A stretch of DNA of 64,000 nt, from NCBI GenBank assembly GCA_963969365.1, contig OZ017757.1:806001-870000 (forward strand), written 5' to 3'. The notes below the pieces were generated by a model that saw only the letters and a list, made by a program, of their open reading frames with translations, did no database searches and was not told where the DNA came from. This document shows positions 1 to 61,430 of this stretch, one piece after another (within the stretch, counting starts at the first letter, position 1; every line of letters starts with the position of its first letter). The DNA is from Asterochloris sp. CNOR1. Taxonomy: Eukaryota > Chlorophyta > Trebouxiophyceae > Trebouxiales > Trebouxiaceae. The translations under genes were made by a program, and so were the position numbers.

Positions 1-2410
1 AGCAATCTGGTCAGGCAGGTGCAGGAGCAGTGCTAGGCAGCTCTTTTTCCGATCCTTGAGGACAGGTGATGCTGCTGCTTCACTTTACACACTGGGATCA
101 AAAGCCTGCAGCCGGCCCACCTTCAGCCAACTGCAGCACAAAGGGCCAGCTGCTGTACAAGTTTGTGCGGGGGTTCAGGGAGGCAGTGCCAACCGCCCAC
201 AAGGCAGCTGGCAGGCCATCCCTTGGCAACTCAGCCCCCTGCGTCTGAGTGCGCTCCCCAAAGCCAAACAGCCGCGTCCTATTGGACACGCTTAAGGTGG
301 TCTCAAGATACTGCTCCTGCGCCACAGAGATGGGGCTGATTCACAGGGCTCCCTGGAGTGCATGGCTGCCGCCACTGAAGGCGCATGCACAACTGGCCTA
401 GCCCTCAAGGTAGAGAGGACCATCATCTGACCTGCCATCTGGAAGGTTGGTAGGACGGGCGCATGGTGCAGCCCTACCAGCAGGGAAGCTTTCTTTGGCA
501 ATCAGGCTGTATTCAGGCACGGTTGCGCACTTTGTGCTGCACGTTACTGGGGAGCCCACCTTAAACACAAGCCTGTGTCCTGCGGAATCGAAGACAGCTG
601 GGGATGCCCTGTCGGCACCTTTTCGTTTCACAGTGACGCTGAAGGGCGCTTCTTCATGGCTCATGTCATACAGCGGCTCTGCGTGCTCAGGTCCTGGATT
701 CTGCAGGGCTGCAGGACAACAGGAAAGGCTGAACAAGCAGCCTCACGCTCAGTGCTGATATCATGCAGCAGCCACGAATGCTCAGGCCCTGAATTCTAGA
801 CGTCTGCAGGACAAGAGCAGAGGCCAAGCAGGGTGCCAAACGCCCTTGCACTCAGTCTGATCCTGGCCCCCCCATACTGCGCTAAGTTCCAGCCTGTTCT
901 AGTGTAGCCATATCCCCTGGCGTTGCTGGACGACCAGGAGTGCACTAGGCAAGACCCTTGTTGGCACCCATGCAAGTTCCCCAAGGGCCACAGCTACATG
1001 GTGTCGTGCCAAAGGCCTCCAAAGGAGAAAGCTGGACATGCCACATACCCAGACCATGCAGCTAGAATGGCTTGCCAGCTGCATGAGCTACATTTTGCCT
1101 GGCCTGACAACCAGAGACAGCGCTGTGACTCACCAGAGTGCTTTGTGACAGTTGATGTCTCAGCGGGAGGCAATACCCGATCATGGAAGTCACCAGGGGT
1201 CTGCAGCTGCTGTGAAAGCTGCCACATTTGTTGCGGCAGACCATGCATTGCTCCGATAAAAGCCCCACTGCTGCCCTCCCTGATTGCAATCAGGAGACAA
1301 CTGCTTCACTTACTGAAGTCCCCAGTTGGCCACAGCTGCTGTGCCAGCTGCGTGACCTGCCAGCGCTGCCCTGCTCTGTCGCTGATGGTCAGGCGTAGGA
1401 TGTCAGGGCGATAAGTGAGCGCAGAGACTGCCAGAGTATCCACATCGGGGCCCAGCTCCGGCTGTGTCGCTGCTGTGCTGCGCAGCTCACCCTGCCAGTG
1501 CTGACCTGCAAGCCCGGAGGTGCATAAGGGGTACCAGCTGGGCTGTGCACTAACACCCCTATATCTAGGTCAGAGCTTGAGTGAGGGTCTGTGGTGGCCA
1601 TGCTGCTCAGCTGTCCTGCCAGTGCAGACCTCTGTGGCCAAGATGGGGATGAGTGGCACCCAAGCTGTGCTATGCGACCTTCCTTGTCAGGCCCAGCTCA
1701 GGCTGCAATGTAGATGTCGTGAGCAGCTTGCCCTGCTAGTGCTGATCTGCATGGCATGAGCTGAGACACTGCTGGCCGTAATGTGAAGGTGTCTCTGCCC
1801 ACACGCGCCTGCTTGAGGCATGATCAGACTGTTCTTAAGGTTATGGTGCTGGCAGCTAGGGCTGCCAGTGCTTATCTGAAAACCCATGCACACCTGCAGT
1901 GGCATCACATGTTGTGGACATGCACACTCCTTTACCACATGCGGTCTCTGCAGCCTTTGCAAGGCCTGTAGCTCCTTGCCAGAAGCAGTGCAGACCACAC
2001 AATGCACTGCGTACCCCCCTGCATTGCTGGCACTGCAGTGAGGAAACATGCCTTGCAACACTGAGTGCACCAGCTGGTAGTCGCTCCGGCCATTGTTCGC
2101 ATAGAAGCAGTCAGCCAGGTCAATGTGAGGATCTCCAGTCTCCAGGGGATCCCAGCAGCAGCCCTGTGTACGGCAATTGTCTTCGAGGATGTCTGGCGGG
2201 CCTGCAGCAGGTTGTGTGACAGTGGCAGCGCCTGGCACTCCCAGATCAGTACAAAATCACAGTCTGCAGATCAGACAGCCAAGGCTCTACAAGAGCTGAA
2301 CGCCTGTCAAGCTCACCGCAGCTCTTCCTGGGACCATGTCTACTGCACTGCTGGGCTGCAGTGAGTGTCCAGGTGACGCCCCAGGCAGCTAGCAACCACC
2401 AGCCAGCCAT
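1..2410 (-). CDS. GH31 alpha-glucosidase with N-terminal trefoil domain, partial
   Basis: Secreted or lysosome/ER-type alpha-glucosidase of glycoside hydrolase family 31. The ATG at 2410 opens a hydrophobic signal peptide (MAGWWLLAAWGVTWTLTAA). A P-type trefoil domain is split over exon 1 (2317-2410, CSRHGPRKSCG) and exon 2 (about 2052-2201, NCRTQGCCWDP then DCFYANNG). A third exon near 1353-1446 gives YRPDILRLTISD, the start of the GH31 beta-sandwich. An exon at about 563-700 gives EPLYDMSHEEAPFSVTVKRK, and one at about 117-314 gives RLFGFGERTQTQGAE followed by NPRTNLYSSWPF, a hallmark of the family. The last two join in frame. The catalytic barrel lies beyond base 1. Exon borders are my reading. 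Acid alpha-glucosidase (which carries a trefoil) fits better than glucosidase II, but substrate is not decided here. Confidence 0.75.
1340..1880. repeat. Degenerate tandem repeat of about 120 bases in GH31 introns
   Basis: The phrase CTGCCAGTGCTGATCTGCA recurs with changes near 1488, 1612, 1731 and 1861, at spacings of about 120-130 bases. The copies are well diverged. The array overlaps the GH31 exon near 1353-1446, so it may be an old intronic expansion. Confidence 0.35.
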
Positions 2411-2959
2411 GTTTTGACTTTCAAGGAAGAAGGAAAGCTGCATTCGAGCCATTTGACGTTGCGGCAATACTCCCCTGCGGTCACTGGCTGGTCACCAGCC
2501 ACTGGTGTACTGAGCATCAGATCACAAATATGCTGCCATCTACAGCTTTGCTGCCCTGTCCCAAGAGCACAATGGAGCACAACTGGATGGGGAATGCCTG
2601 GACACGAAAGCGCAAGGCTCGCAAGCTGTCTGACACAAATGAAGCACTGTTGATGCAGCTCAGGTGGCAGAGCCACCAAAGCTGAGCAGGCTTAGCATGA
2701 GGCCCATTGGAACAGATGGTAGGCTCAAAGATGGTGAGGCCTGCATTCACAAGCCCACAGACAGCCATTGCATAGGACAAAGAAGTTCCCGATGCCGATG
2801 CCTGTCCAGAGCTGTTGCAACTGAGAGCAGCATGAGTGGGTGTGTGTAATCATCACCTCCTCGTGGCCCATCGGCCCATGGGAAGAGGCAGCGGCCTGTG
2901 CTCGCGATGCGTGCATACGTAGTGCCTGCAGGACATTGCAGGCGGCTACAAGCCTTGTT
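2411..2959. promoter_or_regulatory. Intergenic region between divergent GH31 and TAPT1-like genes
   Basis: About 550 bases between the GH31 start (-) and the proposed TAPT1-like start (+). It should hold both promoters. No clear TATA box or repeated motif is visible, and open frames here do not resemble known proteins. Confidence 0.3.
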
Positions 2960-5900
2960 ATGCCTGCAGAGAATAATGGCCTGAGGCGGCCCCCACAGCG
3001 GTCAAACAGTGATGCCGGCGCGGCTGCTGAGGCTGCTGCCAGCCGCCTAGGGCGTGGCTCCAATGGGGCAGCAGAGCCCCCAGCAAATGGCCTGCCAAAG
3101 CAGTGCAGCCCTCAAAGGCTGGCTGCTGGACCCCCAGCAGGTGTGTCTGCTTTTGTTTCAGGGGCTGACCTCCCTGTTGTATCGAAGTGTTACAAGGTTG
3201 CTGTGTTCCCCATGCCTTGCTGAGTTGGCCCAGCCAAGCAGCGCGGTCCCTAGAGGCTGGCTGCTGGCTCCTTCACCAGATGTTGCCCTGTCACCTTTCT
3301 GCATGTGCTTTCAGCATGGGGCAGCACTGCTACTATGCTCCAGCCTGGCCACAAACTGCCTGAATACTGCTGTCCACAGCAAGGGCTGCTGTCAGCACAG
3401 CAGATTGGCTTTCAGTGCCACTGTCTTTGGCGCTGCTTATGGACTTGCGCCTGTCAGATAAGGGCACTTGCTGACCGTAGGTAGCACAGGGGGGAACTTG
3501 CTGATTTCCGCATCTTTGTGTGAATAAGCGCATCTGGCGCTGCAAACCCTATTGGTGTCATCCGCTGGTAGCGGCAAAGCAGAGCGCCAGCTCAGCGCAG
3601 ATCAGCTGTATGACCTGATTTGCGTGGCCATATTTGGCGCTGCCATGCTCATTCTGTACAGCCCCGACGTGGGTGTGCTGTACTCCTGGATCAAGGACCT
3701 GACTCAGGGTGAGGCATGAGGGGCGCACTGTTGAGAGGCACTCGGGGCTTGATGCACTTGTTTTGTCACCCGCGCCGAGCCAGTTCTTGCAGCTCAGCGG
3801 CAGCCCAAAGTAAAATGGAAGGCTTGAGACTGGCTCCATGGGATCCCTGCTGCCCTGTCGCGCTTGCACTTGACAGACCAGTGCACATGTCTGCCTTGCG
3901 CTTTTGCACGGCCATCTCTGTGTGGGGGTGTTGTGAGAGATCCGAGCAGCGCGTCTGCCCGCAAGTATCAGGCGGCTGCCGCCGCCTAGGGCGCCCATAT
4001 GACTCCAGCTGGCTTCAGTGACAGGATGCTGCTCAATGTTGACCAGCACTGTGGCCGATTATTTGACGCTCATGAGCTTGCCTAAGATGGCAGTGGCCCT
4101 CAAAGGACTCACATGAAGCTCGCTTGGTGGCCTGCATGCATCTAACATCTCCATGCAAGTGACGTGCCATGCCATCTGCAGAATTTCTCAAGCTTCACGT
4201 CATCTATACCGCTGTGGAGATCTTGACAAAGTGAGCAGCCTGATGATTGCTGTGTAAAGCCACTCTTTTGGTATCTTGCTGCCGCTTCATGATGCTGACG
4301 ATATGCACCATGTTTGTTCCAGATCACGATGAAGATGTTTGCACATGACTACGTGCCGCTGTGCATCATGCAGCATGAGCTCCTGAGGTGTTGAGCCCTT
4401 GACCTTGTGTGCTGCCAGACTTTGCCATAGCATGCTTACGCACCCTGGCACCTTCACCTGCAGATCTTTTGCTCCTTTGGCATTGACTGCCTAGAGGCTC
4501 TGTCAGGTACCTGCACCATGCACCTCAGCAAGCGGCGCAGCAGGCAAGTGCCGTATTTTTGCTCTGCATCACCAGGATCACATATCCCATCAGCGCGGCA
4601 GTCGGCAAATGCCATGCTTTGATTCCGCCGGCAACCTTGTGGAGATCACAGGTGGGCTGCTCATGCTTCTGCATCCGTTGATCAAGTGATGAGGAGATGA
4701 TCAGAGGTCTGCATGGCCGCTCATCTGTCGACATAGAAGGTGTGAATTGTTGCTGGGTCTCTATGTATTTGCAGGCACAGGGCCCGTTGGGCATCGACCG
4801 TCCTGTCTTGATGCAACCACAGGCATGCTCTCGCCCCCCCCAAGACAGCAGCACTCCGGTCCACTGGCCTGGGTTGCTGCAGCCAGCACCCCAAGACCGT
4901 GTCCCTCTCCTGCTGCAGGCACAGGATTGCAGCGCTTTGACAGCAGCAATCTGTTCAGAATGACCTGCTCTGACATTGTGGAGCGTTTCCAACTGCTGGT
5001 CTCCCCCTCCTTTGTCCTCATGGATGACATGGACAAATCAGGTGAGACTCAAGTCAAACTACATAGTGTCTCTTCAAGCAAAGCACAGTGATGAGCGCAT
5101 TTGCAGCAGGATTCAGGCCTCAGGCTTGGCGGCAGCACCAAGCTTGCACATGAAGGCTGATTGACAAAATGCTTGGCAAAGGCAGTCAGCTGCCAGCGAG
5201 GCAGTGGCTACATGTCCACATGCACGACCCGCTGTGAGCACATGTGTGCTTGACATGTTGTCTCCTGGCATTTGCCCCACAGCAGCTTCATCATCAGTCC
5301 GCAAGCTGTTGACAACCATGCTGCCCAGGATGCTCTGCCACGAGCGTCAATTTGTGGGGGTGGGGCATGAAGCTGACTGAAAGCCACGCTGTGCTCATGT
5401 CCTTGCCTTCAGGTGCTGGCATGTTCAACCTACCTGCAGAGATGCTCTCCTTCACGCCTGCTGCTCAGGTTGTCCCACCTGCCTGCAGGCTGCCGGGTGA
5501 GCAAGGCCAAGCTGCTGCAGCGCCATTTCTGCATCTTTGCCAGTCGGCGCTGGTTGCCTTGCTCCACACTAGCTGCTCAGAATGCTCAGCCAGGTTGCAG
5601 GCCTTTGGGCGCACAATGCCCGAGCTGCTGCTTCTCCCGCCAGTTTGGGATGCTGCGTGCTTAGACAAAGCGCAGCAAGCATCACTGCGTCATGCAGGCT
5701 GCTTGAGGCTCTCCGGCTGGGCAGCTGCAGTGCTGCGCCTGCGCCCAGGCCTGGGGGCGTTGGTGACCCCTGCTGTCTGCTCAGAACGCTTAGCCTGCCA
5801 GCAGGCTCTTGGGTGCCTCAGGACACTTCTCCTCCTCCGCTGCGCTAGGGTCCTTGCCTGTGGGCGCTGGGTGCCTGGAATCATTCTCCTCAGGACCTAC

Positions 5901-6900
5901 ATCCCAACTTTGCAGTACATCCAGGCTTGATGAAATGATCTAAGCCAGTGAGCCCACCTGCAGGCCGCTGGGTGCCTACCGCAGAGCTGCTGCGACGCTG
6001 CATGTACATCTTTGCAGCTGAGATGGTTTTCAACTTGATCAAGCATGCGGTGATGGGGAGATTTGACGAAATCTGCCCAGGGGTGTTTTGAGAGGTCAAG
6101 AAGGTTGGAGTGCTGCATGTGATCGCTTGGGATGTCTGATCACTGGGCAGCACAGACGTGCACCTGCTTGGTAACTGCCTTCACGCTGGCAGGCATGCTC
6201 TACTCAGTACGTGGAACCTGTTTGGCTCCTGCCTGGTAAAACACATGCGGTGTATTACAGTATCGGCCTGCAGCGCCTGCAGAGGACCCAGAGCATTTGG
6301 CAATGTTTTGCTGGAAGTCAAGTGCTGTCCCTCTGGGGACAGCCGCTGGTGAACTTACCTCTGATGCATGGCTGAAGCTGCATAGCCTCACCAGAATGGC
6401 TGGAATGCACAATGTATCTGCATTTGCGCACGCCGGCTGCATGCCATAACGCTCCATTGTGTTACCACCAAGCATGTCAGACACCCTGAACTGCAGTGGA
6501 CTCCACATCTCCTCCCTGCAGTACATATGCGCTGCAGCTCTTGCTCCGAGAAAGAGAGGCTCAGCGCATCTTTGTGACCTACTGTGCAGCCAGGGGCTCC
6601 TAGCAGCCCCCAGCTGGCTGGCAGCACAAGCTGCTGCATGTGGCAGGCTGCAGCTGCCTCCCTATTTGGGTGGCAATCAGTGTCCTCAGAGCAGCCTTAG
6701 GCTTCCTCTTGAAGTACTCAACAACTTTGTACACCCATCACTATCAGCAGTCGTTCCGTATGCCAGGCAGAAATCATTGTGTCAAACAGGCAGACATTGG
6801 CCCAGTGAAGAGTCCAATATTGTCAATCGTCTTGCACCTCAGTGGTGTCCCCGCCTCACTTTGGCAGTTGCTCAGTCGCTTAGGATTGCTGTGATGTCAA
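2960..6900 (+). CDS. TAPT1/Emp65-family multi-pass membrane protein
   Basis: TAPT1 (DUF747) proteins are ER or ciliary-base membrane proteins. Several exons match the family in order: about 3560-3708 (SADQLYDLICVAIFGAAML, a membrane segment), 4180-4229 (FLKLHVIYTAVEIL), about 4465-4505 (IFCSFGIDCLEAL), about 4940-5040 (FRMTCSDIVERFQLLV, the best conserved block of the family), about 6021-6085 (EMVFNLIKHAVMGRFDEI), and a late hydrophobic stretch near 6660-6715 (PIWVAISVLRAALGFLL). The start at 2960 is a guess: it opens a basic, disordered leader rich in Ala, Ser and Arg. The expected N-terminal block of the family between 3100 and 3560 is not recognisable. One junction (near 4229) does not keep phase with a standard donor, so either my exon edges are wrong or the gene is damaged. 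Confidence 0.6.
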
Positions 6901-7080: not shown

Positions 7081-10000
7081 TCAGTCCTGCACTCGACTAC
7101 ACAGGCCCAGCAGTCTCACAAGGGCTGAAATGAAGTCTTCCCGGTCCATGAGCTGGATGCGAGCCACTACATCGCTGCTGGGCCTTCGCAGCAGCCAGAC
7201 TGCCTCCATACAGGAGTGCAGCTGGTGGGCAGCTTGAGGCCTGGCAACATGGTTGCAGCATTGCTTCACCAGCGATGAGAGGGCACACACTGCTCGCTGC
7301 TGGATGATCTCCACCTGCAGCCACAGCAAGTGTCGCTGAGATCTCAGGGCGCAGCAGGATGGAACAGCAGCAAGTGCTGCAGAGTGCAGTTCCAGTTCTG
7401 CCTTGCCAGGTACTGTGAGGTGTTTGGCCTGTCATGTCATATGCTGCATACACGGTGCATGCCAGCATGCTCAGGCTTGCCATTAACGGGACTCACTCAA
7501 ATGTCTGGCAACGTGCTCATGTGCCTGAGGGCACCCACTGCATGCCAGCACGTCTCAAGCTCTCCAGCATCTAGCCTGCTGACTAGCACTGGGATGGCAG
7601 CAGCCCTCCTCAGGGCTTTCTTCTGCAGCCATGCAACAATCTTAGGCTGGGACATGGCGGCGGCTTAGCACCCTTACCCCTGACTGTGGCCTGGCAGACA
7701 GCTTAGGGCTCAGTCTCTACAAATAGGCAACATCCTCTGGCTGAGTAGGCTGCGACATCAGAAGAGCTGAACATCAGTGCCCCTGGCCGCTATCCCTCTG
7801 ACGAACTGGCATGCTGCACACTACGCTACTGTCGAGCCTGCTTGGGAGCTAATCTGCATGCTCGCCTTTGCTGTCAACCAAGCTGTGCTGGGGCCTCAAA
7901 GGTGACTGAGTGCAGCAAAGAGCAGCCATGTGCCTCCACCAAAGCTGTCTCAGGTGATGGCCAGGCTGCCCTGACCTGCAGCTGCGTTTGAAAAGACAAA
8001 GGCAGACCCTGCATGACACCAGAACAGCACCTCAACCAACAAAGTCAGAAGGTGAAGCCACCTACCTGCTGGTCATTGTGGCAGCAGCCAGCACCTGCAG
8101 GGCCCAGGCTGCTGCTGTTTGTCCTCTGCTGCCTCCCTCCCGCAGCAACTTGACGAGAGCTGGGATTGCGCCCAGGGAACACACCTCACACTGCACAGTA
8201 GGCCCCAGTGCCCTGTAGACCAGCCAAGCTTCACAAGGGACAAGATAAGGGCTGGAGTTGCACACTGTGAGCACATCTTTGAATGCACAGAAGACAGCAC
8301 TATTGAACATGGCCGACAAGCCATCAAGCAGCTGTGCGAAGATACATGAGGACTGGATCTAAGCGTAGTTAGCACTCTCCTGACTACACAGCAGACAGCA
8401 AGAGGTGTGGCAGTGTTCAAAGCAGGCAGCGCCTTAGGCCTCAGATGGCACAGAAACAGCAGTGGGCAACAGGTGTTGGAAGGCCTGCAATTGCTGCTGC
8501 TCAGGGATCATGCCTGCAACACAAAGACACCTCACAGCTTTGCATGGGTTGGCAAGAGATGCCACAGGTATGCTGGCAACCCCTGCGAGGCTGTGAGACA
8601 TATTCCTTGATGCCTTGCATTCATGCCTTGCATAACTGCACCATCAGCAGCAGGCTGTCTGCACAGGTTATCTGCTGGGCCCAGCAACCTGCCAAACAGC
8701 CTGTACATGAATGAGCTGGCAGCCTTTCAGCTTTGCAGCGCAGCTGACAGTCAGTCGGCTGCGCCAGCTGCCAGCGGCATTCCTTCAACACACAAATCTC
8801 CCCTGCCACCAGCAGCATTGCTGCCTCACATGTCATTGGGGCCAGCAACAGTCTATGCAAAATGGTCGGGTTGCGGCCCACCTTGCAGTGGTGCAGCTGT
8901 GAGGGGGTCGGCCAGCACGAGAGCAGTGTCCCCCAAATACACTCGCCTGTTTTGTTGCCCAGCTCAAGTGCCACCAGCAGCAGCACTGCCTTTGCATGCT
9001 ATCCTGGACCTTGGAATCCAAGCAACTAGGACTGGCACCGCCCCAACATGACAGAACCACGGCCTAGGAGCTCACAACACAGCTTGCGTGGCCCTGCAGC
9101 TTTGCCACCCTCCTGACAATTTGGCAGGTGCGCCGTCATTGCCAAGCACGCCTGCAATACAACACATCTTCCACGCTCGGCCCCACATGTGCCACCAGCA
9201 GGACCGCCGCTGCGAATGTCAATTCTTGGCCTAGCCATCTACAACACAACCTGTACAGCCCCATTGACGTGCAGCCGACCTGGCAGTCTCGCAGCCGCGC
9301 CAGACTGGCCAGCATGGCAGCAGCGTTTCCTCGAACAAACTCATCCACCCCGCTGCCCCTTACAGATGCCACCAGCAGCGGCGCTGCCCCTGCCCGCAGC
9401 AGCACGGCTGCATGGCGCGGCTCCACCTTACACAGCATCTGCATCCTGCTGCACGCCATTGCCTGCGCCATGGAGCACCCTGCAGCCACGATCTCATCTT
9501 GTTGTCATTGTGATTTTGGTGTTGCAGAAGTATGTGCAGCAGCCTGTAGGCCGCAAAGACACACGCTGCGGCAACAGTGGTGCGGCCTGAAGGCTTCATG
9601 CAGATGTCGAAGATCACAAAGCTGACATGTGTGACTCGTGTCAGCATCTCAGCAAGCAGGAGCTGGCCTCAACAACAACAGATAATTGCATTTGTGCAGG
9701 GCGCCTCCTTAATCTCACAGAGTAAGCTCAGGGTTGACTTACTTCAGCTTGGCACCCATCACAGGAATCAAACCCAGTAAGAACAGCCCGAGATCATTGT
9801 GCAGCATTTACCTTGCCCCTCTTGCTGTATACATGGACTTGCCTGCCTGCAGAGTAGCCACTAGGGCAGGAGCGAGCCCCAGCGACACCAGCTCAAAAGT
9901 GGTTGTCTGCATTGATGGCCAAGCTGACCACTGCTGCATTGGCAGCGCGAGCTGCTCTCGGCCCTCTGTGGTGCATCAGGTCCAGCAGCAGCTCCACACA

Positions 10001-12640: not shown

Positions 12641-12918
12641 ATGTTGAGACCTGCAAGACGGTGCCCTACGCTTGAAACGCTGGCAACCCTAACGCGGCGT
12701 GTCTAGCATTCTGACAGGCCATTTGGTTGGCTCACAGATGTTGCAGTGCAGGAGGGGATTGGGTGACCTAAGGTGGATTTACAACCAGTCAAACCCTCAA
12801 ACGCGTGCCAGTTGCCGCTCCGCACAGCTGTCATGACAACACTGATCAGTGTTGGGCGTTTGATGATGTAAGCTGGTCCTTACCACCCAGCATCCAGAGA
12901 AGGCGGTCAATCAGCTAT

Positions 12919-15900: not shown

Positions 15901-16380
15901 ACCTGATCTAGTCCCACAGCCTGCTCTGTCCCATGCTGGCCTGTCTGCGCAGCAGTCCCGACTTCTCCTGAGCCAGGAGTGTGGCTTTTGCATGTCCAGG
16001 TGAAGATCTTGCTGCCGCCACGACCCAGGGCTTGCTGTGTGTGCAGGTTCCTAGTTGACCTGAGGGAGGGGCACACAGACAAGTATGACATGAACCACTG
16101 GGACTTCCACGCTGAGAGTCTGGAGGCGGTCTGGGACCCAGTCCTGTTCCTGTTCCATGGACGTGACTTCCCGGCAATTCAGTCTCATGATCATTCTGCT
16201 GAGATATCACAGCGTTCAGAAGAGACGCAGAGACACTCAGGCTGTGTGGGGCAAGCCATAGCAGCCTTGTTTGCCTATCCCGGACAGAAGGACCGCTTGC
16301 AGCGGAACACGAGGATATTGCAGGAATACCAGGCACTGGCTGGGTACTCCGCGCCACTATGCTCAAGCTGGCCTCCGTGA
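12919..16380 (+). CDS. Secreted glycosyltransferase-like protein, copy 1
   Basis: Six exons splice in frame: 12919-13131, 13304-13420, 14344-14472, 14775-14834, 15272-15468 and 16047-16380, about 350 residues. The start gives a signal peptide (MHIWLVLGLLCCGAFSTVQG). The order of blocks matches an uncharacterised glycosyltransferase-like family of fungi and algae: GGVIDEVVWVVDA, then IYSKAFAQGSS, LYIYFDNQISFI, FLYVSANVINHQSL, a W-rich block, and a final A-LFAYPGQKDRLQ before a Cys near the end (CSSWPP). In that family the third block reads YIKIDDD and binds metal and sugar nucleotide; here it is FDNQ. No frameshift is seen. The gene is divergent from the armadillo gene. Activity is uncertain because of the changed motif. 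Confidence 0.6.
14055..14305 (+). repeat. Intronic tandem duplication of about 141 bases
   Basis: The segment from ATGCTGGCC to CAGCAGGGCCTGTGTC occurs twice, starting at 14055 and 14197. The homologous intron of copy 2 has only one (about 59082-59190). It arose after the segmental duplication or was lost from copy 2. Confidence 0.7.
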
Positions 16381-20200: not shown

Positions 20201-20263
20201 TGTTCAGCACCTGTGTCATCCTGGTACGTGTACTACTCATGCAGGCCAGGTTGAGTGGCCTGT

Positions 20264-20295: not shown

Positions 20296-20299
20296 CAGC

Positions 20300-21130: not shown

Positions 21131-21139
21131 CACGCCTGC

Positions 21140-50489: not shown

Positions 50490-52145
50490 TCAGTTGACCA
50501 GCTTCGCGGTCTCTGCAGATTTCGCCACCAATCCATCAACAAACTCAGCAGCGGCTGCATTTGCCTGCTGTTTGTGGTCCAACATCTCACACTTAGGACC
50601 AACCTTTGATGTGAAGGTGCTGGATAGTCCATGGTCCTCAGGAAGTGCCCAGAATGGACCATTTCCCAGCAATGAGAGCTGACAGATCTGGTCAACAATT
50701 GCAATGCTGGCTTTGCCCAACCTCAGCCCCCATATATCGTCATCACCTACACAACAGGCAGGGACAGAAGTTTCAGCGCCCTGTAAAAGCAGTACACTTG
50801 CTTCCATAGAAGCAATGCTTCTGGTGCGGGTGAAGCATCCTCCAGTGGCTGGCGAGGCATCAATCTGAAAGAGGGATACTGACTCCCCGGTCTATCACCT
50901 GGTTGATTCTGCTGCAGGGTGGGCACAACAACGTCCAGCAGAAACTCCATGCTGAAGGTTGGCACGGTCACATTCACCCAGCCAACATGTCTCAGGGCTG
51001 AGGCAGGCTGTTGAAACATGAAACTGCCAGGGGTGCAAGGGCTGGATGGGCTGCATGGCATGGGTTGCACAAGGTCCAGACTGAAACGGGACTGAAAGTC
51101 GAACAACAGGCTGATGGAGGCTGCAGTTAGAGCCATGTCGTCATCTGGAATGTACACCTGCAATTTGCAAGGTGCAGTGGTGCAGACTGTTCCTGAGGCT
51201 CTAACCAGCATGGGGCAACATGTTGACCAGCAACATGTCAGTATGGCTCACCTGCTTGTAGTGGGGTCTGTAACACTGCTCAAAAGCAGGGTTTGTCAAG
51301 AACTGGAGAACCATCTGCCACTTGCCGCCCTGTGCCTGCTCAACATGCACACATTGTGCACATTCAACATCCTGAGAGCCATTTAGAATGACTGCCAGGT
51401 CCCAGTTGGCTGTTTCAAAGCCAGTCAGCCAACCAGACAGCTGAGAGATGTCTCTGGCACTTGCAATGACCAAGTTGGAACGATTCAGAGTACAGGTGCC
51501 TGCAGGCAAGACCTCCACTCAGGAACATGCTCAGGATGATGGGTCTGCCATGCCAAAGCAGACTAGCTTGAGAGCAAGCACACATGGCCTGCATAAATGG
51601 CACCTCATGCCGCACTTGTGTCTGCTGCAGCTGCCGGCAAGTACGGAGGCCTTGCGCTTCAAAATAATGGCCGTCACTCCAAAATACCCAGGGCACTGCA
51701 CCTTGTGAGGCAGCTGAATCTGTCAAAGCATTGTACCGACCTCCAAGATGGTGTGGGGAGGCCTGCAACACAAGGACATTTCCTAATGCCAGTTTCACCC
51801 TGATGCCAGGTGCACACTGTGACCACTTGTAAGCACTGCCATGTCAGGTTGTGATGCCAGTCTGAAGCTGATGGTCATGCCGCCATGATTCAGCACCAAC
51901 CCAACTCCGCCTGTCTGACTTACTAGCAGCATGAGACCAAACCCAAAAAGGCTCAGCGCCAAGCACCCAAGGCAAGCTCGCAGGGCTGTGCTGCTGAGGA
52001 GCGCCAAAGATTCAGATCCATACGAGAGGAGACCCTGGGACTCCAGCCGAGCTTCCTCTGGGTCTGCTCTGACCCATACGGTGCTGGCTGCCCTTGAGTA
52101 CTCAGGGTCAAATGAGCCTCCATTTTGCGTCTCTGATGTGAGCAT
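50490..52145 (-). CDS. DUF707-like type II membrane glycosyltransferase
   Basis: The ATG at 52145 starts a short cytosolic part and then a membrane anchor (ACLGCLALSLFGFGLMLLVS), typical of Golgi transferases. Exons: 52145 to about 51800; about 51620-51795 (VKLALGNVLVLQAS); about 51250-51500 (RNLIIA-like RSNLVIASARDISQLSGWL, GGKWQMVLQFL); about 50896-51158 (VYIPDDDMALTA, LDLVQPMPCSP, VGWVNVTVPTFSM); and 50490-50750 (GLRLGKASIAIVDQICQL, then an Ala-rich tail). The PDDDM motif, the Q-P block and the late IAIVD block match DUF707 proteins, which have a transferase-like fold and no proven reaction. It shares its upstream region with the second GT32 gene. Confidence 0.7.
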
Positions 52146-52591: not shown

Positions 52592-53740
52592 ATGGCAGGG
52601 ATAGATCTTGACTTTGCTGGAAAGGGATGGCTAGTCACAGCTCTCCTGTGCATTGCCTGCACGCTCACAGGTGCTCCTGCTATTGCAGCACCTGGTGGCG
52701 TCAGCTGCTGTCTAAAGTTCTGATGGTGATGTTGCGCTCTCTGCAGTCTGGGACCTGAGTATGTGCAGCATGTGCCAGGCCACTGACAAGGCGCCGCTCT
52801 CAAGCCATGTGCAGGACATCTTTGCAGCGTGAGTTGGAGCTGATGTCAAAGGGTGACATGTGCATGCGGCAGCACAATACATGGCTGTGGAACCAGTTGA
52901 GGTGGACGCAGTCAAATGGCAGCACAGCAAGGCCTGACTGAGTACATTCTGCACTGCCCTGCCATGGAGGTGTCTGGCATCATGTCAGCCTGCCTGACAC
53001 AGCCTGCCAGGCATTGTTGCCCAATAACAGCACAGCCACAGCTTACAGTGACAGTGTCAATGTCAGTCACATTCAAACCACCCTGCCCATGCTTCTGCAG
53101 CTGCAGCCTGGCAAAGCAGCTATTTGGTTGCACCACTTTCACAGCTTGATACTCCCTGCACACATGTGCTTCTTGCAGCCAACCAAGGCAGCTCTCCTGA
53201 GGCAGCAGGTTTACAGCTTGATGCTGATCTGTACACGCTCAGGCTCACGTACAGCAGAGGCAGCGCAGCCCCAGAAGCCTCAGCCTCATGCAGCTGCCCG
53301 GGTGGGAGGGGGGGGGGGGGGGGGGGTGATGCCATGAGGGCTGGACTTTACTTGACAGCCCAGCACTAAACTGTGCTGCGTGCACTTGACCCCCCGACAG
53401 CCTGCTGGCTAACATGATCTCAGTGCGCAACCTGTGTTCCCATACAGCCTGCCAAGGAGGGCTGCCATACAGGCCATTGCGCAATGCCTCACACCACTCC
53501 GTGCTGCCTGCAGCCTGCCTCGGACAGCTGCCCATTCTGGTCTGGCGGACCAGCTGCAGCGCATCATGATCCGGGGTACCGTGCAGCAGCTCAAGCATGA
53601 GATGAGCAAGCCACCTGGCAGCATCCCCCACATCATGAACTGGGTCTACTACGGGCCTGAGGGGACCCTGTTTCGTGCCTTCAAGTCTGGGCGCATGAAG
53701 AATCAGAGCATGAATTCCTGCCTCCAGGCTCACAGGTGAC
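52592..53740 (+). CDS. GT32-family glycosyltransferase, second gene, cut at the gap
   Basis: The ATG at 52592 gives a signal anchor (GKGWLVTALLCIACTLT). Exon 2 (about 52747-52829) joins in phase (VWDLSMCSMCQATDKAPLS). Later exons include SDSVNVSHIQTTLPMLL near 53040 and, at about 53450-53738, RGTVQQLKHEMSKPPGSIPH, which matches QGDMHQLKHELCKPPGHIPH of the GT32 gene at 42200. Here the usual H-R after IPHI is N-W (IPHIMNWVYYG). The exons with the DxD motif are absent: the frame reaches a donor at 53739 and the next 335 bases run into the assembly gap. It may be truncated by the duplication or just unassembled. Confidence 0.6.
53308..53326. repeat. Run of 19 G
   Basis: Uninterrupted G run in or beside an intron of the second GT32 gene. 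Such runs cause sequencing slippage, so its length may be wrong. Confidence 0.95.
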
Positions 53741-53875
53741 TGGGAGAATTGGCCGCATTATGGCCTTGCTGTGACAGGGTGCGATCTGTGCAGGGCGCTG
53801 CCAGAACTGCAGCCTGGGAGCACCACCCACAATTGTGAATGCGCCACCACGTCCTGAATGACAGATGAATGGTAG

Positions 53876-54075
53876 NNNNNNNNNNNNNNNNNNNNNNNNN
53901 NNNNNNNNNNNNNNNNNNNNNNNNNNNNNNNNNNNNNNNNNNNNNNNNNNNNNNNNNNNNNNNNNNNNNNNNNNNNNNNNNNNNNNNNNNNNNNNNNNNN
54001 NNNNNNNNNNNNNNNNNNNNNNNNNNNNNNNNNNNNNNNNNNNNNNNNNNNNNNNNNNNNNNNNNNNNNNNNNNN
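53876..54075. other. Assembly gap, 200 N
   Basis: Exactly 200 N, the usual size of a scaffold gap of unknown length. It separates the broken GT32 gene from duplication copy B. Confidence 0.98.
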
Positions 54076-57000
54076 CTAGGAGTTCCACAATTGTGTGAAG
54101 CTACACGCTGCAGCTTGGCACCCAGCACAGGAACTGAACGTGGTAACAAAAGCCTGAAGTACTTGTGCAGCATATACCTTGCCCCTATTGCTGTATGCAA
54201 GGACTTGCCTGCCTGCAGAGTAGCCACCAGGGCAGGAGCAAGCCCAAGTGACACCAGCCCAAAGTGGTTGTCTGCATTGGCGGCCAAGCTGACCACTGCT
54301 GCATTGGCAGCACGAGCTGCTCTCGGCCCTCCTTGATGCATCAGGTCCAGAAGCAGCTCCACACACCCCTCAGCCTTGAAACATTGATGGGTGCAGGGGT
54401 TCTCGGCCAGGACTGCCAGCAGATAGGCACCCTGCAAGCAAACAGCAAGCGTCAATGTGCATGCGCTGGTCCAGGTGCTGCAATGATACACGACAATCTT
54501 GGGAGGCAAGGCAGCGGAAAGCCTTGGCTAGTCTGTTGCTGGCGCCACCAAGTCCTTTGATTTTGGGGGAGAGCTATCCCCAGCACAGCACCGCCCGCAG
54601 CGAGCAGCACCGCTGTTGCCATGCTTGTAACGTGCATGCTCTGTCCTGCTGAGGCATGGGCTGAAGCGTGCATGCATTGTCAGCCAGATGTGTCAACAAC
54701 AGGGCCCGAATCCTAATGTATTCATGGCTCCACCTGCTGGTCAAGACATCTGCAAAGCCCGTCAATGTCCTACAGCCTCACCTTGGTTTTGGGCAGGCCG
54801 CTGCAAACTGCCAGCAGGCACGTATCTGTCACAGGGATGACACAGTGGCCGCACCTCTGAGGCAAGCAGATCGTGCCCGGATGCCAGCAAACTTCTTAGC
54901 CCTGAGGCGGCCCCCTCACGCACGATGTCCAACTTGCAGCTCTCGCTCTGGGAGGCCAGACGCCAGAGCACAGCTGCAGCTCTCCCTGCTGGGCCTGCAG
55001 ACATCAGCAGTGACAGGATCAAGCCGCATCTACACGTGAGGTGAGGTACATCTCTTGCTATGAGAGGCCAGGGGCCACACTACAGCTGCAGCCCTCCCTG
55101 CCAGCCCTGCAGGTTACACACAGGGAACTTTGTTGCTGCAGTGGTTGTGAGTGGTGTTTCTTCCTTGAAGAGGCCAGGCGCCACAGCATAGCCGCGTCTG
55201 CCGCCCAGGCATGATCACTGCGCCTGTCAAGCAGCAGCACAGCCACAGCCCTCCCTGCAGGCACCAGCAGTGCATCACTGTGAGCACTACTACTACAATG
55301 CACATCTGAGCGAGAAGGTCGCCCTGCAGGCATCTTGTCGGACCAGGCTTCTGCAGCATAACTGACCGCCCGCCAGTCCTACACTTGCAACCTTGTAGTA
55401 CATGCACTGCCAGCTGCGCCAGCAGCCTTAGCAGTGGGCCGTCTGTCATCAAGACATCTGACCATACAGTCAGTGTGCATCTCCTCTGGCCATGTAGCAG
55501 GCTCACCTGATGCATCAGAGGCATGCAGCTGGGCCAGTAGGCCCTGCAGCATGCCACCCTCCAGGAAGGCACCCTTGCAGACAGGCTCAGCTGCCACGAG
55601 GCACAGCAGGTTGCAGGCCAGCACAGCAGTCCGCTGGGCGCTGCTGCTGCGTGCCCCTGAATAGTCCAGGAGGGCGACCAGCTGAGGCAGTGCCCCCAGC
55701 TCCACCACCTACGGCCATTTCTGAATGAGTCAGCTGTCTTCAGGCTGGCCCAGGAGATTATGCAGGCGGTGGAGCAAAACGCGAGGACCATTTAAGGCAG
55801 TGCCCCCAGCTCCATAACCCACAGCCAACATGACTGCATCAGCTTCTTCCAGAGCGGCTCAGCCATTCATGCAGGCAATGGAGCAGCCTTGCCCTGCGCC
55901 ATGGAGGAGTGTACAGCAGCCACCCTGCCTGCAGCAGGTTGGGGCTGCAGTCTGGGCGGCTTACTCAAATTGCCTGCAGCACAGGAGTTTGCAAGGCCTG
56001 CAGCACCCCGACTGCTACATCCTGAATGGAAGCAAGCAGGGACTATGCACAGCAGGGCCTGTCTGGCGAAGCCCACCTGCAGCAGGCGGTCTGGGTGGGC
56101 GGCTTGCTTGCTGCACATGACGAGCTGCAGGATGGCTGCCAGAGCTGCCTGCCGCAGGCTGCCAGGGCCCTGCAGCAGGCGCACCAGAGCCGCCAGAGCG
56201 CCAGTGGCAGCTGCTGCCTGCCCCAGGGCCGGCTGGCACGCGGCAGCCCGGCTCAGAGCTGTGGCAGCAAACCAGGCAGCAGGGAGGCCATCTGGCTGTG
56301 ATGCTGCAAGAAGCGCCACCAACTGCTGGAGAGCAGGGCCAGTGCTCAGTGCCTGCGCCGCTGGCAGCAGGCCCGCTAACCTGCAGTCAGGACAAACCGC
56401 CAGCAGTCACCCTGTGTGCACAGTCAGGACAAACCGCCAGATCAATTTCAGGTGCGTGCTCTGCAACTGCTGTGCAAGTGCAAGCCTGCCAAACTGCAGG
56501 GACCGTTGGCAGGCTTGGTGCCTCATGAACGCAGCCGGCCCTTCTAGATGCTGCCTTTGCACTGCATGAGGCTGATGCAGCCACTGTGTCCTCCTGGTCC
56601 AGGGCATTAGGAACTGCTGACTCCACTTGAGCTGTGCCAGAGTCCTTGCAGACCAACTGCATGGTCTCAATGGCTTGGGAAAAGGTCTCTCGCTGCAGCT
56701 GCACAGCATGCCCCACACAGGCAAATTACCACCCCACCAAAGCCTTGACAGGCCATCCACCTGCACAGCGTTTCGGTCGCCAGTGCATGGCAGCTGCCTG
56801 GCGCGCACTGCAGCATGTGCAGCATGCCCCACACAGCTGCCTGGACGTCGCAGTCTGCCTGGCTCCAGCAGGCTCTGCCGCCTATATCTGCTGCAACATC
56901 AGCACTCTCTGCCACTGCACTGTCTGCGGCCTTCACACTCGCTGCCAGCCCCAGCATCTGGTGCCCAGCTGCTGACAGGCTGCCTGATGTGGGTTGCTGC

Positions 57001-57760
57001 CACACTGTGCCTGCGATGCCCCCTGCTGGCGGGCTAGGGTACACTGGTGGGGTCTGCTGAGGGGTTGGACCCTCCTGGAGGCCGCCCTCTGCAGCAGCTG
57101 CAGCTGGAGCCAGGAAAGTGGCATGTGCCTTTGGCTTCTCAGCAGGGGAAATGGCCAGGGGCAGCGCTGCCCCCTCTGTAGCTGCCAGGCTGGGGTGCAC
57201 GCTGCCCTGAGCAAGCTGCTGTGAGGGCTGGGGCCTTGCCACTAGGCAGCCTGGAGCTGAGGCTGGGCCAGCTTCGGCTGCAGCCTCACAGGCCATGGCC
57301 CAGTGCAGGATGGCACGAAGAGCAGCCTGCCTCTCGCTGGCGGTCCCTGTTCTAAAGGCAGAGATGAGCGATGTTTAGCAGATGGCAGCCTGAATGAAAA
57401 CAGGCTGCCTGAAGGCCATAAAAAATGGGTTCACACAGCTGCCCAGAAGACGTGACAGCTTCACAGAAGAGGTACTGCAGCGCATGCCTCGTTGCAGATT
57501 GCCTTGCAGATGCAGGAAACTCAGCAGTGGCTAGAGTTGTGCAGCGTGTGCCGGTGGGCTGCACTGTAGTACAAGCCAGACGCACCTTGCCAGTTGCAGC
57601 TGCTGATGGAGGCTGAAAGGCGCATTCTGTTGAGCCTTGGGTGCCTGCGCTGGCCTCTGAAGCACCTCATGCACCCCTCTGACCCAGTCAGGTTTCATGG
57701 CCTGGCAGTGCACGAGGCCTCGCAGCATATGGGTGCTGAGACTCCGGCACCTGGGCACAG
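54076..57760 (-). CDS. Armadillo-repeat protein gene, copy 2, 3' end missing
   Basis: Same exons as copy 1, in the same order: near 57590-57740 (VHCQAMKPDWVRGVHEVL), 56670-57300 (RQAALRAILHWAMACEAAA, then a Pro/Ala-rich linker with PPVYPSPPAGG), 56075-56322 (TGALAALVRLLQGPGSLRQA, absent from copy 1), 55510-55708 (LGALPQLVALLDYSG), about 54860-55005 (CKLDIVREGAASGLRSLL) and 54150-54440 (EGCVELLLDLMHQGGPRAA, then LGLAPALVATLQAGK). Here the sites that are frameshifted in copy 1 are open. The 3' exons matching 7081-9500 fall in the gap or are lost. ARM scaffold of unknown partner. The start codon was not found. Confidence 0.6.
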
Positions 57761-60700
57761 CTGTTGAGAGCGTGTGGAGGCCTGCAACATGTTGCCCTGC
57801 ACGTGAAGGAATGCTTGGCAATCCCGACGTGGTATGCCTGGCGTTCAGTAGCCCCATTTGGTTAACTCCCACCGGCGATGCAATGCAAGATGGTAAGTTT
57901 GGGTGACCTACAGGGGTCCAGTAAACCCCGACGCGTCCTGTACAACAGTCGAGCCCAGCTGGTCCCCACGCAGCTAGCGGGGTCAGTCTTGGAGGCCTGT
58001 TGTAAGCTGTTCCTGACGTTCTTTCAATTTCCCCCCAGAATGTGGGCCCAGCACTTTGAGAAAACTGTCAATCAGCTGATGCAGACTTGGTTTGTGCTAG
58101 GCCTGCTTTGCAGCAGTGCCTTCAGCACCATTTATGGGGCAGGATGGCCCTTTACTTCCAATGACCGGATCAACAATCTGCCTGTCGCCGTGACAGAGCC
58201 AAAGCAGCGGTATGCAGCAGATCTGCATACCCATCATCAGCTAAGCGCTAGGCTGGAGCACAAAGGCGTGACCGTAGTGGTGTTTCACCAGGTGTGGCCT
58301 TTCAACATTCACAAGTCATGGTCTGTCAAGCCAAGCAGTGAGGCGCAGAGTGCTGCTCAGCACATAGGCTTCAACCTTTGCTGCTTCGGCAGCATGTGGG
58401 CGACTTTGATCTGGCGGCAGGCTGCTCACTTGGAAGCCATGTGTAGGACGCCGAAGCCAGCAGGGTACTGAATTGCTACCTGGAGAGGGACCTCAAGGGC
58501 CGTGCTGGCGGAGTAATTGATGAGGTCATCTGGGTGGTGGATGCATCCCCACAGGCTGAGCAGGTGAGCCACCGAGGCTGTCAGCTACACTGGGCTAGGC
58601 ACTGTCTTGGTTAGAAGTAGGCTTGCATGGTGCCAGCTGTGATGCTGAAGCTTGCTGCTGTTTGATGCACAGAATTAGCTGATGAGTACGCTCTCGGCAC
58701 ACACCTGCTGAGGTAGCTGAAATGAGATGACCGCTCAAGTGCTGAATTGCAGTCAAAGAAGGTGCAGCAGTCCACAGCACCTGCTGGGTGCGCCCAGATG
58801 CAGCAGGTGGCAACTCAGTGCCACAGCAAGAGGTGCTTCATGAGTCAAACAGCCTGCCATGCTGCACGATGTGCACGAGGCATGCTGAGACGCAAGCAGA
58901 GCAGAACTTGCGCCACATGAGGCCGCTCAGCATATCATCACTCTGCACAATGCCAAATGCAGCTATTGCCAAAAATTTGTACAACTGAAGCAGTCAATTC
59001 TGCCCCTCTCCAGGCTGTATGCTCGAAGCATTCATGCGCAATAGCATGTCACCTAAACAGATGGCTGCTTCTGGCAGGGGTATGCTGGCCTAGACAGAAA
59101 TGCTTGAGAGCACTCCAGAGCGTCACTTCTGACATCCAACGCTGGACCAGCTGCTGATGATGCTCCCTTGCATCTACAGCAGGGCCTGTGTCCAAGCCTC
59201 ACGTGGCTCACCAGTCTCATTGCCTGCAGGAGCACGCAGAGGTGGATCAGATGCTGATGGCACACCCTGGCATCTACAGCAAGGCCTTTGCCCAGGGCAG
59301 CAGCCACGCTGCAAAGTGGAAGGTGGTCGGAGTCCGCCAGGACAGGCTGTACATCTATGTGAGCGCTTGGTGGCTGTCCCCTTTGTGCTAATGCCTGCTG
59401 GCTGTGCATTTTTGTGATGGCCTGTTAGTTGTGCATCCACATGTCTGTATGCAGCCCGCAAAAGATCCCTGTACCAGCTAAAGAGTGCCTGAGACATAGT
59501 GGTCTTGGTGCACGAGTGGTGAGCAGGAAACCAGCATGGTGCAGGCCTCATTTGCGCCGCTGAAGGTCTGCTGCAAGCAGCTCTGTCGAGGCCCCCAGTC
59601 TCTGGACAGTCTGCCAGAGCACTCTTCAGTGTCCTCCTGTGTCTGCAGCGTGTGTGTCCTGACTGCAGATTGACAACCAAATTAGCTTCATACAGAAGGG
59701 AGCCCTGAAAGCCATGGTTGATGACAAGGTGTGTAAATATGAAGCCTGTCTTCCAGGCAAGCCTGATGTAGGAGCAAGTTTCCACCTGTGCTCTCTGTGC
59801 ATCTCCCTGGGTCAGAACGGCGCAGGCGCCAGTGCCAGGCTGGGCAGGCATGCCACCGTGCGCTTTGTTCTGTGCCCTGCATCAAAACAACCTGTAACAA
59901 CATGTGCCTTGCACATGGCTTGGCCAAGGCCACCATTTGTTTGTCTGCTTGTGACATGGGTGTGCAGCCCTGCCGCCATTGCATCCTCAGGCTCAAGGGG
60001 TAGGGGGCCTATAAGAAACCAGCTCGATGACCACCTGCGCCTGGGCATGCCTGCACAGGCCCTCTGTCTAAATCCCACTCCATGCCAGCTTGCAGACCAG
60101 TTGTGGTTTCCTACAACCAGCAAGCTTGGCCCAGGCATTGTCCATGACCCACATACTCCTCTGCAGGTGGACAACAACAGTTTTCTCTACATCAGTGCCA
60201 ATATTATCAACACCCAGTCCTTTGTGGCTGCCCATGTGCGCCTTGGGGCCCTGACTGCCCTGAGCGGGTCAGACAGCAAGTGGGCGGCCCAGAGGGACGA
60301 GTGCCTGGCCAGTGCCAGCAGCTGGGCCAGCCAGTGGCAGTGCGCGGCTCTGTTACACGCCAGGTGCGCTCAGGAAGTGGCACTGGCTGAGCCTGAATAG
60401 ACAGGGCCAACTGGTCGCTCTGTGCAATGTGACAGCCTTGCAACCCACTCCACCTCAGCCAGCCCCTGGCAGCATGTGAGTGCTCCAGGCGAAAACTCGT
60501 CTGGCTAGGTGCTGTCGCAGCCTCAAGTGCACAGGAGTTCAATTTGCTGTTTGTCCATGCCTGGTGCGGTATACTTGCCAGCTGCCTTGGGAGCCTTGCT
60601 GGATCAGTCTGTGTAAGCATTGAGCAGCTGATTCCATGCCGACTGGCAGTGCACTGCCTTGATGCACAGGGTGTGAGCTGATCACGCTGAAGAGTACCTT

Positions 60701-61430
60701 ATGGACGCCTTGCTGCACCTGCCTGCCTTGCTGCCCACTCCTGGGGCAAGCCCTGGCAGTGCGCTTATGCCAGCAATGTCATGAGGGTCACAGGCTGCCC
60801 TGACAAGGTCAGCTCTTCTGCTGGACCCACAGCCTGCTCTGTACCATGCTGGCCTGCCTGCACAGCAGTCCTGGCCTCTCCTCAGCCAGGAGTGTGGCCT
60901 TTGCATGTTCAAGTGATTTTGTTACGCCATGACCCAGGGCTTGCTGTGTGTGCAGGTTCCTGGCTGACTTGAGGGAAGGGCGCACAGACAAATATGACAT
61001 GCACCGCTTGGACTTTCACGCCGAGAGTCTGGAGACTGCCTGGGACCCAGTCATGTTCCTGTTTCATGGCCATGACTTTCAGGCAATTCAGTCGCATGAT
61101 CACTCTGCTGAGATCTTGAAGCACTCAGAACAGACGCAGAGACACTCAGGCTGTGTGGGGGCGGCCATTGCGGCCCTGTTTGCCTACCCCGGACAGAAGG
61201 ACCGCTTGCAGCAGAACACAAGGATTTTGCAAGAGTACCAGGCACTGGCGGAATACTCCATGCCTGTATGCTCCAGCTGGCCCCCCTGAGGGTTAGACAT
61301 GCTCACTAATCTGATGCCACTCTGGCAGCATGGCCAGTGAATTCACTTGGCATTTCAGAGCTTACATTGCAAGAACACTGCAAGCCGCTTTGCGCTCTTC
61401 CTGTCTCGCCTGCTGCAACAGTTGAGTGCT
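54085..61430. repeat. Segmental duplication, copy B
   Basis: Direct copy of about 9740-16530. The left edge coincides with the gap. The right edge is near 61430, where likeness to 16530 fades. It contains 786 bases (56080-56866) that copy A lacks. Confidence 0.9.
58079..61289 (+). CDS. Secreted glycosyltransferase-like protein, copy 2
   Basis: Six exons match copy 1 and splice in frame: 58079-58291, 58447-58563, 59230-59358, 59669-59728, 60167-60363 and 60956-61289. Signal peptide MQTWFVLGLLCSSAFSTIYG; the start at 58079 lines up with copy 1, though an in-frame ATG at 58039 is also open. Blocks: GGVIDEVIWVVDASPQAEQ, IYSKAFAQGSSHAAKWK, LYIYIDNQISFIQKGALK, FLYISANIINTQSFVAAH, YDMHRLDFHAESLETAW, AALFAYPGQKDRL. 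As in copy 1 the expected DDD is DNQ, so this change came before the duplication. No disabling change is seen. Confidence 0.6.

What the first reader, a model, noticed from the sequence alone, without database searches (positions are those of the whole stretch)
1..61289. Dense neighbourhood of secretory glycan genes
Within 61 kb I read a GH31 glucosidase, an Mnn1-type transferase, two GT32 genes, a nucleotide-sugar transporter, an exostosin GT47, a DUF707-like membrane protein, two copies of a secreted transferase-like gene and a GT-like relic. Family calls rest on motifs in the sequence. That they work together is inference from position. Algal nuclear genes are not usually clustered by pathway, so this may be an undescribed wall or glycoprotein gene cluster.
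Basis: partly seen in the sequence, partly recalled or inferred. Interest (0 to 1): 0.75.

Follow-up and report, generated by a model that had tools for sequence, protein, structure and literature searches.

The report
Duplicated sugar-chain gene island in alga
Part of one chromosome of an alga carries an unusual crowd of genes for building and trimming sugar chains, much of it copied in place, which may be where the cell varies the sugars it makes for export, although whether these genes work together has not been shown.

Summary
The crowding is real and larger than reported. The window is the right-hand part of a ~220 kb island (about C12:645-868 kb) with eight clear glycan-enzyme families (GH31, GT32, GT47, PF11051 Mnn1-type, TPT transporter, Cas1-type acyltransferase, processive GT2, UDP-sugar epimerase), two marginal ones (GT77-like, FkbM) and two without any Pfam match. 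The island's divergent GT32 family has 11 of 11 genome matches inside it. 41.5% of the island lies in internal duplications of 300 bp or more, against 0% of the examined flanks. Co-expression could not be tested. Closest known: the small outlier chromosome of Ostreococcus; this one is internal to an ordinary chromosome. Best reading: a duplication-driven locus that diversifies secreted or surface glycans.

The parts
1..2410 (-). 5' part of a secreted GH31 alpha-glucosidase (signal peptide, trefoil, N-terminal domain); the gene continues left to about C12:799.1k; a second copy lies inverted at C12:744-756k
   Evidence: dN/dS 0.14 between the copies
3573..6091 (+). DUF747/TAPT1-like gene or fragment; copy at about -127 to -123 kb; probably a passenger, not a glycan gene
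   Evidence: (PF05346 3.2e-16)
9286..12273 (-). Armadillo-repeat-like gene copy 1, carried in the same duplicated block as secreted gene X
   Evidence: PF00514 0.0023, below cut-off
12919..16170 (+). secreted gene X, copy 1 (family found only in this window in this genome)
17940..19709 (-). PF11051 (Mnn1-type) gene with signal peptide (by eye); one of two PF11051 matches in the genome
22395..28163 (-). Plavaka-type transposase-like gene
   Evidence: PF18759 3.8e-7
39902..40111 (+). fragment of a small repeated family (other copies near -10.8 kb and -102 kb); fringe/GT31-like by eye and recall only
   Evidence: no Pfam hit
40949..42122 (-). GT32 gene of the island's own family, DXD present
42765..44553 (-). 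nucleotide-sugar transporter, TPT type (N-terminal exon uncertain, perhaps to 44684)
46625..49084 (+). GT47 exostosin-type gene copy (start approximate), probably decaying: in-frame stop at 48438-48440; sister copy at -155.6 to -152.5 kb
50894..51422 (-). half copy of the two-domain 'DUF707-like' family
53521..53718 (+). first exon of the GT32 family, inside a 94%-identical 3.9 kb inverted duplicate (50036-53875) that ends at the gap; later exons not seen, possibly in the gap
53876..54075 (.). scaffold gap of 200 N; everything to its right is joined across it
54877..57206 (-). ARM-repeat-like gene copy 2
58004..61064 (+). secreted gene X, copy 2
9742..16532 (+). duplicated block A (ARM + X), direct copy of 54108-61427, 70-86% identical in pieces
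54108..61427 (+). duplicated block A' (ARM + X)

Best explanation
A ~220 kb glycan-enzyme island inside an ordinary chromosome of an alga, grown by repeated local and inverted segmental duplication. It most likely works as a diversifying locus for secreted or surface glycans. The transporter and the UDP-sugar epimerase would supply sugar donors in the Golgi; GT32, PF11051, GT47, GT77-like and processive GT2 enzymes would assemble chains; the Cas1/RWA-type acyltransferase and possibly the FkbM methyltransferase would decorate them; the secreted GH31 would trim alpha-glucosyl residues outside the cell. Duplication, divergence and loss of members would alter the resulting surface. Shown: gene content, families confined to the island, duplication, purifying selection between most compared copies. 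Inferred: that they act on one class of glycan, that this is the cell surface, and that selection favours variation.
For: Eight glycan families over their Pfam cut-offs in the interval, plus two marginal. GT32 family: 11 of 11 genome matches in C12:659.7-847.4k. X: 7 of 7 matches in the window. 'DUF707-like': 7 of 9 matches in the island, 2 of 9 on C11. Internal duplication 41.5% of the island against 0.0 in both examined flanks. Pfam sample to the right: 8 of 9 sequences hit ordinary cellular domains, none a glycan family. dN/dS 0.13-0.38 in 10 of 11 copy comparisons. In a relative, X and two Mnn1-type exons lie on contigs of one length, 561372; two different GT32 copies on one of 296437.
Against: No expression, glycan or true synteny data. 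Several members are partial or broken (window GT47, the half 'DUF707-like' copy, stops in 3 of 11 GT32 matches, stops inside two of the three Cas1 matches, which may be introns). The -98 kb GT32 copy gave no Pfam hit as joined. Non-glycan genes are interspersed. The GT47 pair has 2 synonymous and 13 non-synonymous changes, which fits decay as well as selection. Other Mnn1-type and X relatives sit on contigs of other lengths (2587662, 2715144). With only the eight clear families counted, chance is not negligible if the genome has 300 or more glycan loci.
Confidence: 0.47

Rival explanations
1. A duplication-prone, transposon-containing stretch that by chance started with a few glycan genes; copying made it look like a cluster and there is no joint function.
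For: 41.5% of the island is internally duplicated; DUF747 and ARM-like genes were copied along with the glycan genes; broken and partial copies; Plavaka-type transposase. Eight families in some 221 kb interval reached by chance in 0.8% of runs at 240 loci, 4% at 300, 24% at 400.
Against: Duplication cannot place unrelated families together; with each family's island copies counted once, 5 of 7 Pfam families in one 221 kb interval gave P 7e-5.
Confidence: 0.33
2. One reading: one dedicated, co-regulated pathway cluster for a single wall polymer or glycoprotein glycan.
For: Broad tool kit: donor supply, transporter, several transferases, acyl and perhaps methyl decoration, secreted hydrolase.
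Against: Interspersed unrelated genes, broken members and nine loci of one GT32 family argue against a lean pathway cluster; nothing ties the enzymes to one product.
Confidence: 0.14
3. A mating-type or other low-recombination region, in which glycan genes are passengers.
For: Inverted duplications, decaying copies and a transposon are usual in such regions (general knowledge).
Against: No RWPxRK motif in six frames over the 334 kb (a motif split by an intron would be missed); no other sex gene was searched for.
Confidence: 0.04
4. Remains of an integrated giant virus rich in glycan genes.
For: Giant viruses of algae carry such genes (PMC9614988 and PMC4691112, search listings only).
Against: Intron-rich genes; three scans of viral contigs with GT32, Mnn1-type and X confirmed no relative (close relatives only).
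Confidence: 0.02

Closest known systems
Small outlier chromosome (SOC) of Mamiellales, e.g. Ostreococcus tauri chromosome 19 (PMC5082852, passages read)
   Same: Enriched glycosyltransferases together with FkbM methyltransferase, epimerases/dehydratases and triose-phosphate-type transporters; about 180 kb with large inverted repeats; recent GT and TPT paralogues; transposon-related genes
   Different: Here it is internal to a 2.76 Mb contig (0.65-0.87 Mb) of a 56 Mb intron-rich genome; GC differs by only 1.1-1.7 points from the flanks; no expression or virus data; the most copied family is a GT32
Conserved gene neighbourhoods of green algae (PMC7826186, passages found by term search)
   Same: Functionally related, non-homologous genes lying close together in algae
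   Different: Most of those found by its first criterion are 2-4 gene groups conserved over several species; the main text had no occurrence of 'glycosyl', 'carbohydrate' or 'cell wall'; this island is far larger and duplicated
Tandem arrays of one glycosyltransferase family
   Same: Local copies of GT32, GH31, GT47, X
   Different: At least eight unrelated families share the interval

Membership tests
Mamiellales small outlier chromosome | enrichment of glycosyltransferases with epimerase and sugar transporter | tested here: met
   no full count of the genome's transferases was possible
Mamiellales small outlier chromosome | methyltransferases including FkbM | tested here: inconclusive
   one FkbM match at E 1.9e-4, 22.0 bits against a cut-off of 22.7
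Mamiellales small outlier chromosome | large inverted repeats | tested here: met
   pieces of -61.9..-39.6 kb lie inverted at 2.4..-28.0 kb
Mamiellales small outlier chromosome | a separate small chromosome | tested here: not met
   interior of contig C12, 2,760,497 bases; ordinary genes to the right
Mamiellales small outlier chromosome | clearly lower GC than the genome (recalled) | tested here: not met
   56.1% against 57.2% (right) and 57.8% (left)
Mamiellales small outlier chromosome | expression switch in virus-resistant lines | not testable with these tools
   no RNA-seq
Metabolic/pathway gene cluster | several non-homologous enzyme genes close together beyond chance | tested here: met
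   (7e-5 for searched families); weaker in the choice-free bound
Metabolic/pathway gene cluster | co-expression | not testable with these tools
   no expression data
Metabolic/pathway gene cluster | conserved grouping in relatives | tested here: inconclusive
   one shared contig length for X and Mnn1-type, one for two GT32 copies; other relatives on contigs of other lengths
GT32 (PF04488) | profile match and DXD motif | tested here: met
   window copy 1.2e-10, -146 kb copy 9.6e-9; GGMYLDADID; in the -146 kb copy the join GGIYLDT-DIECY is an inferred splice; the -98 kb copy gave no hit
PF11051 Mannosyl_trans3 (Mnn1-type) | profile match over cut-off | tested here: met
   123.6 bits against 22
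GH31 | profile match and catalytic WIDMNE motif | tested here: met
DUF707 (PF05212) | profile match | tested here: not met
   protein 5: 0 families at E<=1; none in the genome, but nothing rang in the controls either
Glycosyltransferase (secreted gene X) | match to any transferase profile or solved structure | tested here: not met
   none for copy 2

The most novel reading that the evidence does not exclude
An autosomal counterpart of the Ostreococcus viral-immunity chromosome: a self-duplicating reservoir of Golgi glycan enzymes, with a GT32 family of its own, by which another algal lineage keeps changing its surface glycans against viruses, grazers or symbiotic partners.
Probability: 0.25. 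Interest if true: 0.85.

Novelty: new variant of a known kind. Interest (0 to 1): 0.6.

Why it matters
If the island is a diversifying glycan locus, it would show that the SOC-type arrangement need not be a separate chromosome, and it would offer a concrete set of candidate genes for differences in glycans between strains of the kind reported for N-glycans within Chlorella (PMC7383745, start of abstract only). It makes a test simple: expression and variation of one interval in sister strains.

Tried and rejected
Ab initio gene finding trained on long ORFs missed the Mnn1-type gene and was replaced by a model seeded from that gene. Exon-wise Pfam searches of the genome are insensitive: PF03016 and PF03151 missed the window's GT47 and transporter, so genome counts are lower bounds. 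Viral origin: three scans without a confirmed relative. Mating-type idea: no RWPxRK. Species: regional GC of 56-58% and 56.4 Mb do not fit Trebouxia sp. A48 (69.1 Mb, 49.7% GC; PMC12712428, passages); a search naming Asterochloris listed nothing I could use; the alga is left unnamed. Photosynthetic eukaryote: 31 chlorophyll a/b-binding exon matches; that it is a green alga was not tested. Structure prediction was not used, because spliced models are not contiguous in the DNA. After the filing check I lowered the best explanation from 0.50 to 0.47 and raised the neutral rival from 0.30 to 0.33, because the families clearly over their cut-offs number eight, not nine or ten.
Full report
What was checked. 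The window is C12:806001-870000 of G000, 56,383,464 bases in 21 contigs. I read it with 170 kb to the left and 100 kb to the right. It comes from a photosynthetic eukaryote: 31 exon matches to the chlorophyll a/b-binding family. Genes have many short exons; in the two genes I checked exon by exon, introns are GT-AG with one GC-AG. Negative coordinates lie in the left flank (C12 position = 806000 + x).

Inside the window. GH31 (-6.9 kb to 2410, minus) has, by eye, a signal peptide, a trefoil domain and the nucleophile motif GLWIDMNE (the last across an inferred splice); its nearest solved relatives by sequence are maltase-glucoamylase, a plant alpha-glucosidase and lysosomal alpha-glucosidase, ahead of ER glucosidase II. 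The PF11051 gene (17940-19709, minus) reads through with a signal peptide; E 1.3e-35; it is one of two matches of that family in the genome. The transporter (42765-44553, minus) matches PF03151 at 1.2e-21 over profile positions 8-289 of 291. A GT32 gene (40949-42122, minus) matches PF04488 at 1.2e-10 once its DXD exon is read (0.014 without it). GT47 (about 46.6-49.1 kb, plus) matches PF03016 at 2.5e-19 but carries an in-frame stop in a conserved exon where its 92%-identical sister at -155 kb has a sense codon; it may be a pseudogene, or be spliced around that place. The 50.9-51.4 kb piece and the 40 kb fragment are partial copies. The 53.5 kb GT32 piece is a first exon whose duplicated block ends at a 200 N gap, so its remaining exons may be unassembled. 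The secreted gene X exists twice, in a duplicated block with an ARM-repeat-like gene; no profile or solved structure matches copy 2.

Beyond the window. To the left Pfam supports a Cas1-type 10-TM acyltransferase (1.2e-9; two of its three genome-search matches have a stop inside, perhaps introns), a UDP-sugar epimerase (2.8e-36; solved relatives are mostly UDP-glucose and UDP-GlcNAc 4-epimerase types) and a processive GT2 (1.1e-11). Marginal are an FkbM methyltransferase segment (1.9e-4, 22.0 bits against a cut-off of 22.7) and a GT77-like gene (0.0057, below cut-off; 7.1e-4, over cut-off, with two stops inside the matched stretch). There is a second GH31, a second GT47, and GT32 loci near -146, -141, -116, -98, -70, -47, -39 and -20 kb; the -98 kb copy gave no Pfam hit. 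A query with the family's main exon gave 11 matches in the genome, nine loci, all 11 on C12:659.7-847.4k; 3 of the 11 carry a stop. The five PF04488 matches over the genome lie elsewhere, on C9, C11, C12:1.72M and C14. The 'DUF707-like' family gave 9 matches, 7 in the island and 2 on C11. X gave 7 of 7 in the window.

Borders. Blastn of the 334 kb against itself (pieces of 300 bp or more, more than 1.5 kb apart) covers 41.5% of -161..62 kb, 43.1% of the window's first 61.3 kb, and 0.0 of -170..-161 and of 62..164 kb. The borders were set after reading the genes and dots, and the left control is only 9 kb long. For a Pfam control I sent ten sequences: one from the left flank and nine from 62 kb rightwards, out of 25 groups there; eight of those nine matched (SPX, LRR, LSM, cyclophilin, UBX/SEP, SSRP1, flavodoxin, DUF3591), none a glycan family; the other and the left one matched nothing. 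The comparison is not symmetrical, since in the island I sent the groups that looked like glycan genes. Coding segments of the whole right flank were read by eye without a glycan gene being seen.

Is it more than chance? Merging neighbouring hits and counting the island once, seven Pfam families with hits in the genome (PF01055, PF04488, PF03016, PF11051, PF07779, PF03407, PF03151; 28 loci) were placed at random 100,000 times; five or more families fell within some 221 kb in 7e-5 of runs, and the genome-wide searches find five there (the PF03016 hit in the island is below its cut-off). Dropped from this count: PF05212, which had no hit, and the families sought with island proteins. A bound that does not depend on the choice, for equal-sized families: eight families in some 221 kb interval is reached in 0 of 3,000 runs at 180 loci, 0.8% at 240, about 4% at 300, 6% at 320, 24% at 400 and 96% at 600; ten families in 0 runs at 180 and 240, 0.05-0.1% at 300-320, 0.6% at 400 and 18% at 600. 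Published counts of glycosyltransferases alone are 52-77 in the five green algae in the passage I read (PMC3797821), so 400 or more glycan loci seem unlikely, but this genome was not counted. Elsewhere the searched families lie at most two to an interval (C11: 'DUF707-like' and GT32 about 95 kb apart), as random placement predicts (mean maximum 1.94).

Are the copies alive? dN/dS between copies is 0.14 for GH31, 0.13-0.37 in five GT32 comparisons sharing one copy, 0.31 for X, 0.27 and 0.38 for the two halves of the 'DUF707-like' gene (the second with one stop), 0.29 for DUF747; the GT47 pair has 2 synonymous and 13 non-synonymous changes, ratio about 2. Only aligned coding segments were compared, so stops seen are mostly outside them. 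Most copies were thus under purifying selection for much of their history; GT47 was not, recently. dS of 0.18-1.24 in these pairs makes alleles or assembly doubles unlikely; the GT47 pair (dS 0.016) and the near-identical blocks (3' half of GH31 96%, 50-53.9 kb block 94%) are not judged by this.

Relatives. Three protein searches were allowed. GT32 relatives (9 proteins) include two on a contig of length 2742779 that are 99.5-100% identical to our copies (probably the same species) and two different copies on one of 296437. X relatives (3 proteins): one 99.5% identical, two nearer to copy 1 than to copy 2. Mnn1-type relatives (5 proteins): one 99% identical; two different copies of exon 1 on a contig of length 561372, the same length as that of one X relative; two on one of 2587662. 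In our genome X copy 1 and the Mnn1-type gene are neighbours. If equal length means the same contig, which is likely but not shown, this linkage is kept at 69-75% (X) and 72-75% (Mnn1-type) protein identity. Other relatives lie on contigs of other lengths, so conservation is open.

How it may work. From the families' established roles: epimerase and transporter supply Golgi sugar donors; GT32, PF11051, GT47, GT77 and GT2 enzymes extend chains; Cas1/RWA-type enzymes O-acetylate; FkbM enzymes methylate; a secreted GH31 removes alpha-glucosyl units. That they act on one glycan class at the surface is inference. Recurrent duplication with both retained and dying copies suggests turnover rather than a fixed pathway.

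Compared with what is known. The small outlier chromosome of Ostreococcus tauri has the same kinds of genes, an inverted-repeat region of about 180 kb and transposon-related genes, and more than half of its genes are over-expressed in virus-resistant lines (PMC5082852, passages). This island fails two defining features, being a separate small chromosome and having markedly lower GC (the latter recalled), so it is not filed as an SOC; it may work like one. Eight answered searches of the paper library listed, among the rows shown, no paper on such an island inside an ordinary algal chromosome; that library is partial.

Noticed in passing
window 53876-54075: A 200 N scaffold gap lies exactly at the end of a 94%-identical duplicate; the order of everything to its right rests on scaffolding, and the rest of a GT32 copy may be missing there.
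   Followed up: partly
C12:744-756k and 797-808k: The two inverted GH31 copies are 74-86% identical in the 5' part and 96% in the 3' part, as if gene conversion had acted on one end.
   Followed up: no
window 21121-22086 and 23578-23937: Tandem arrays with units of 53/159/212 and 81 bases beside and within the Plavaka-type transposase-like gene.
   Followed up: no
window 30082-32616: Coding-like segments with no Pfam match, perhaps part of a mobile element.
   Followed up: partly
C11:1408-1413k and C11:1503.5k: The only 'DUF707-like' matches outside the island lie about 95 kb from a canonical GT32 match.
   Followed up: no
C2:1733.5-1736.7k and 1742.3-1745.4k: Two GH31 loci with identical scores 8.7 kb apart, a fresh tandem duplication or an assembly double.
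   Followed up: no
about -129 to -121 kb and window 2.5-8.5 kb: DUF747/TAPT1-like gene and its surroundings copied about 130 kb apart, 69-92% identical in pieces.
   Followed up: partly
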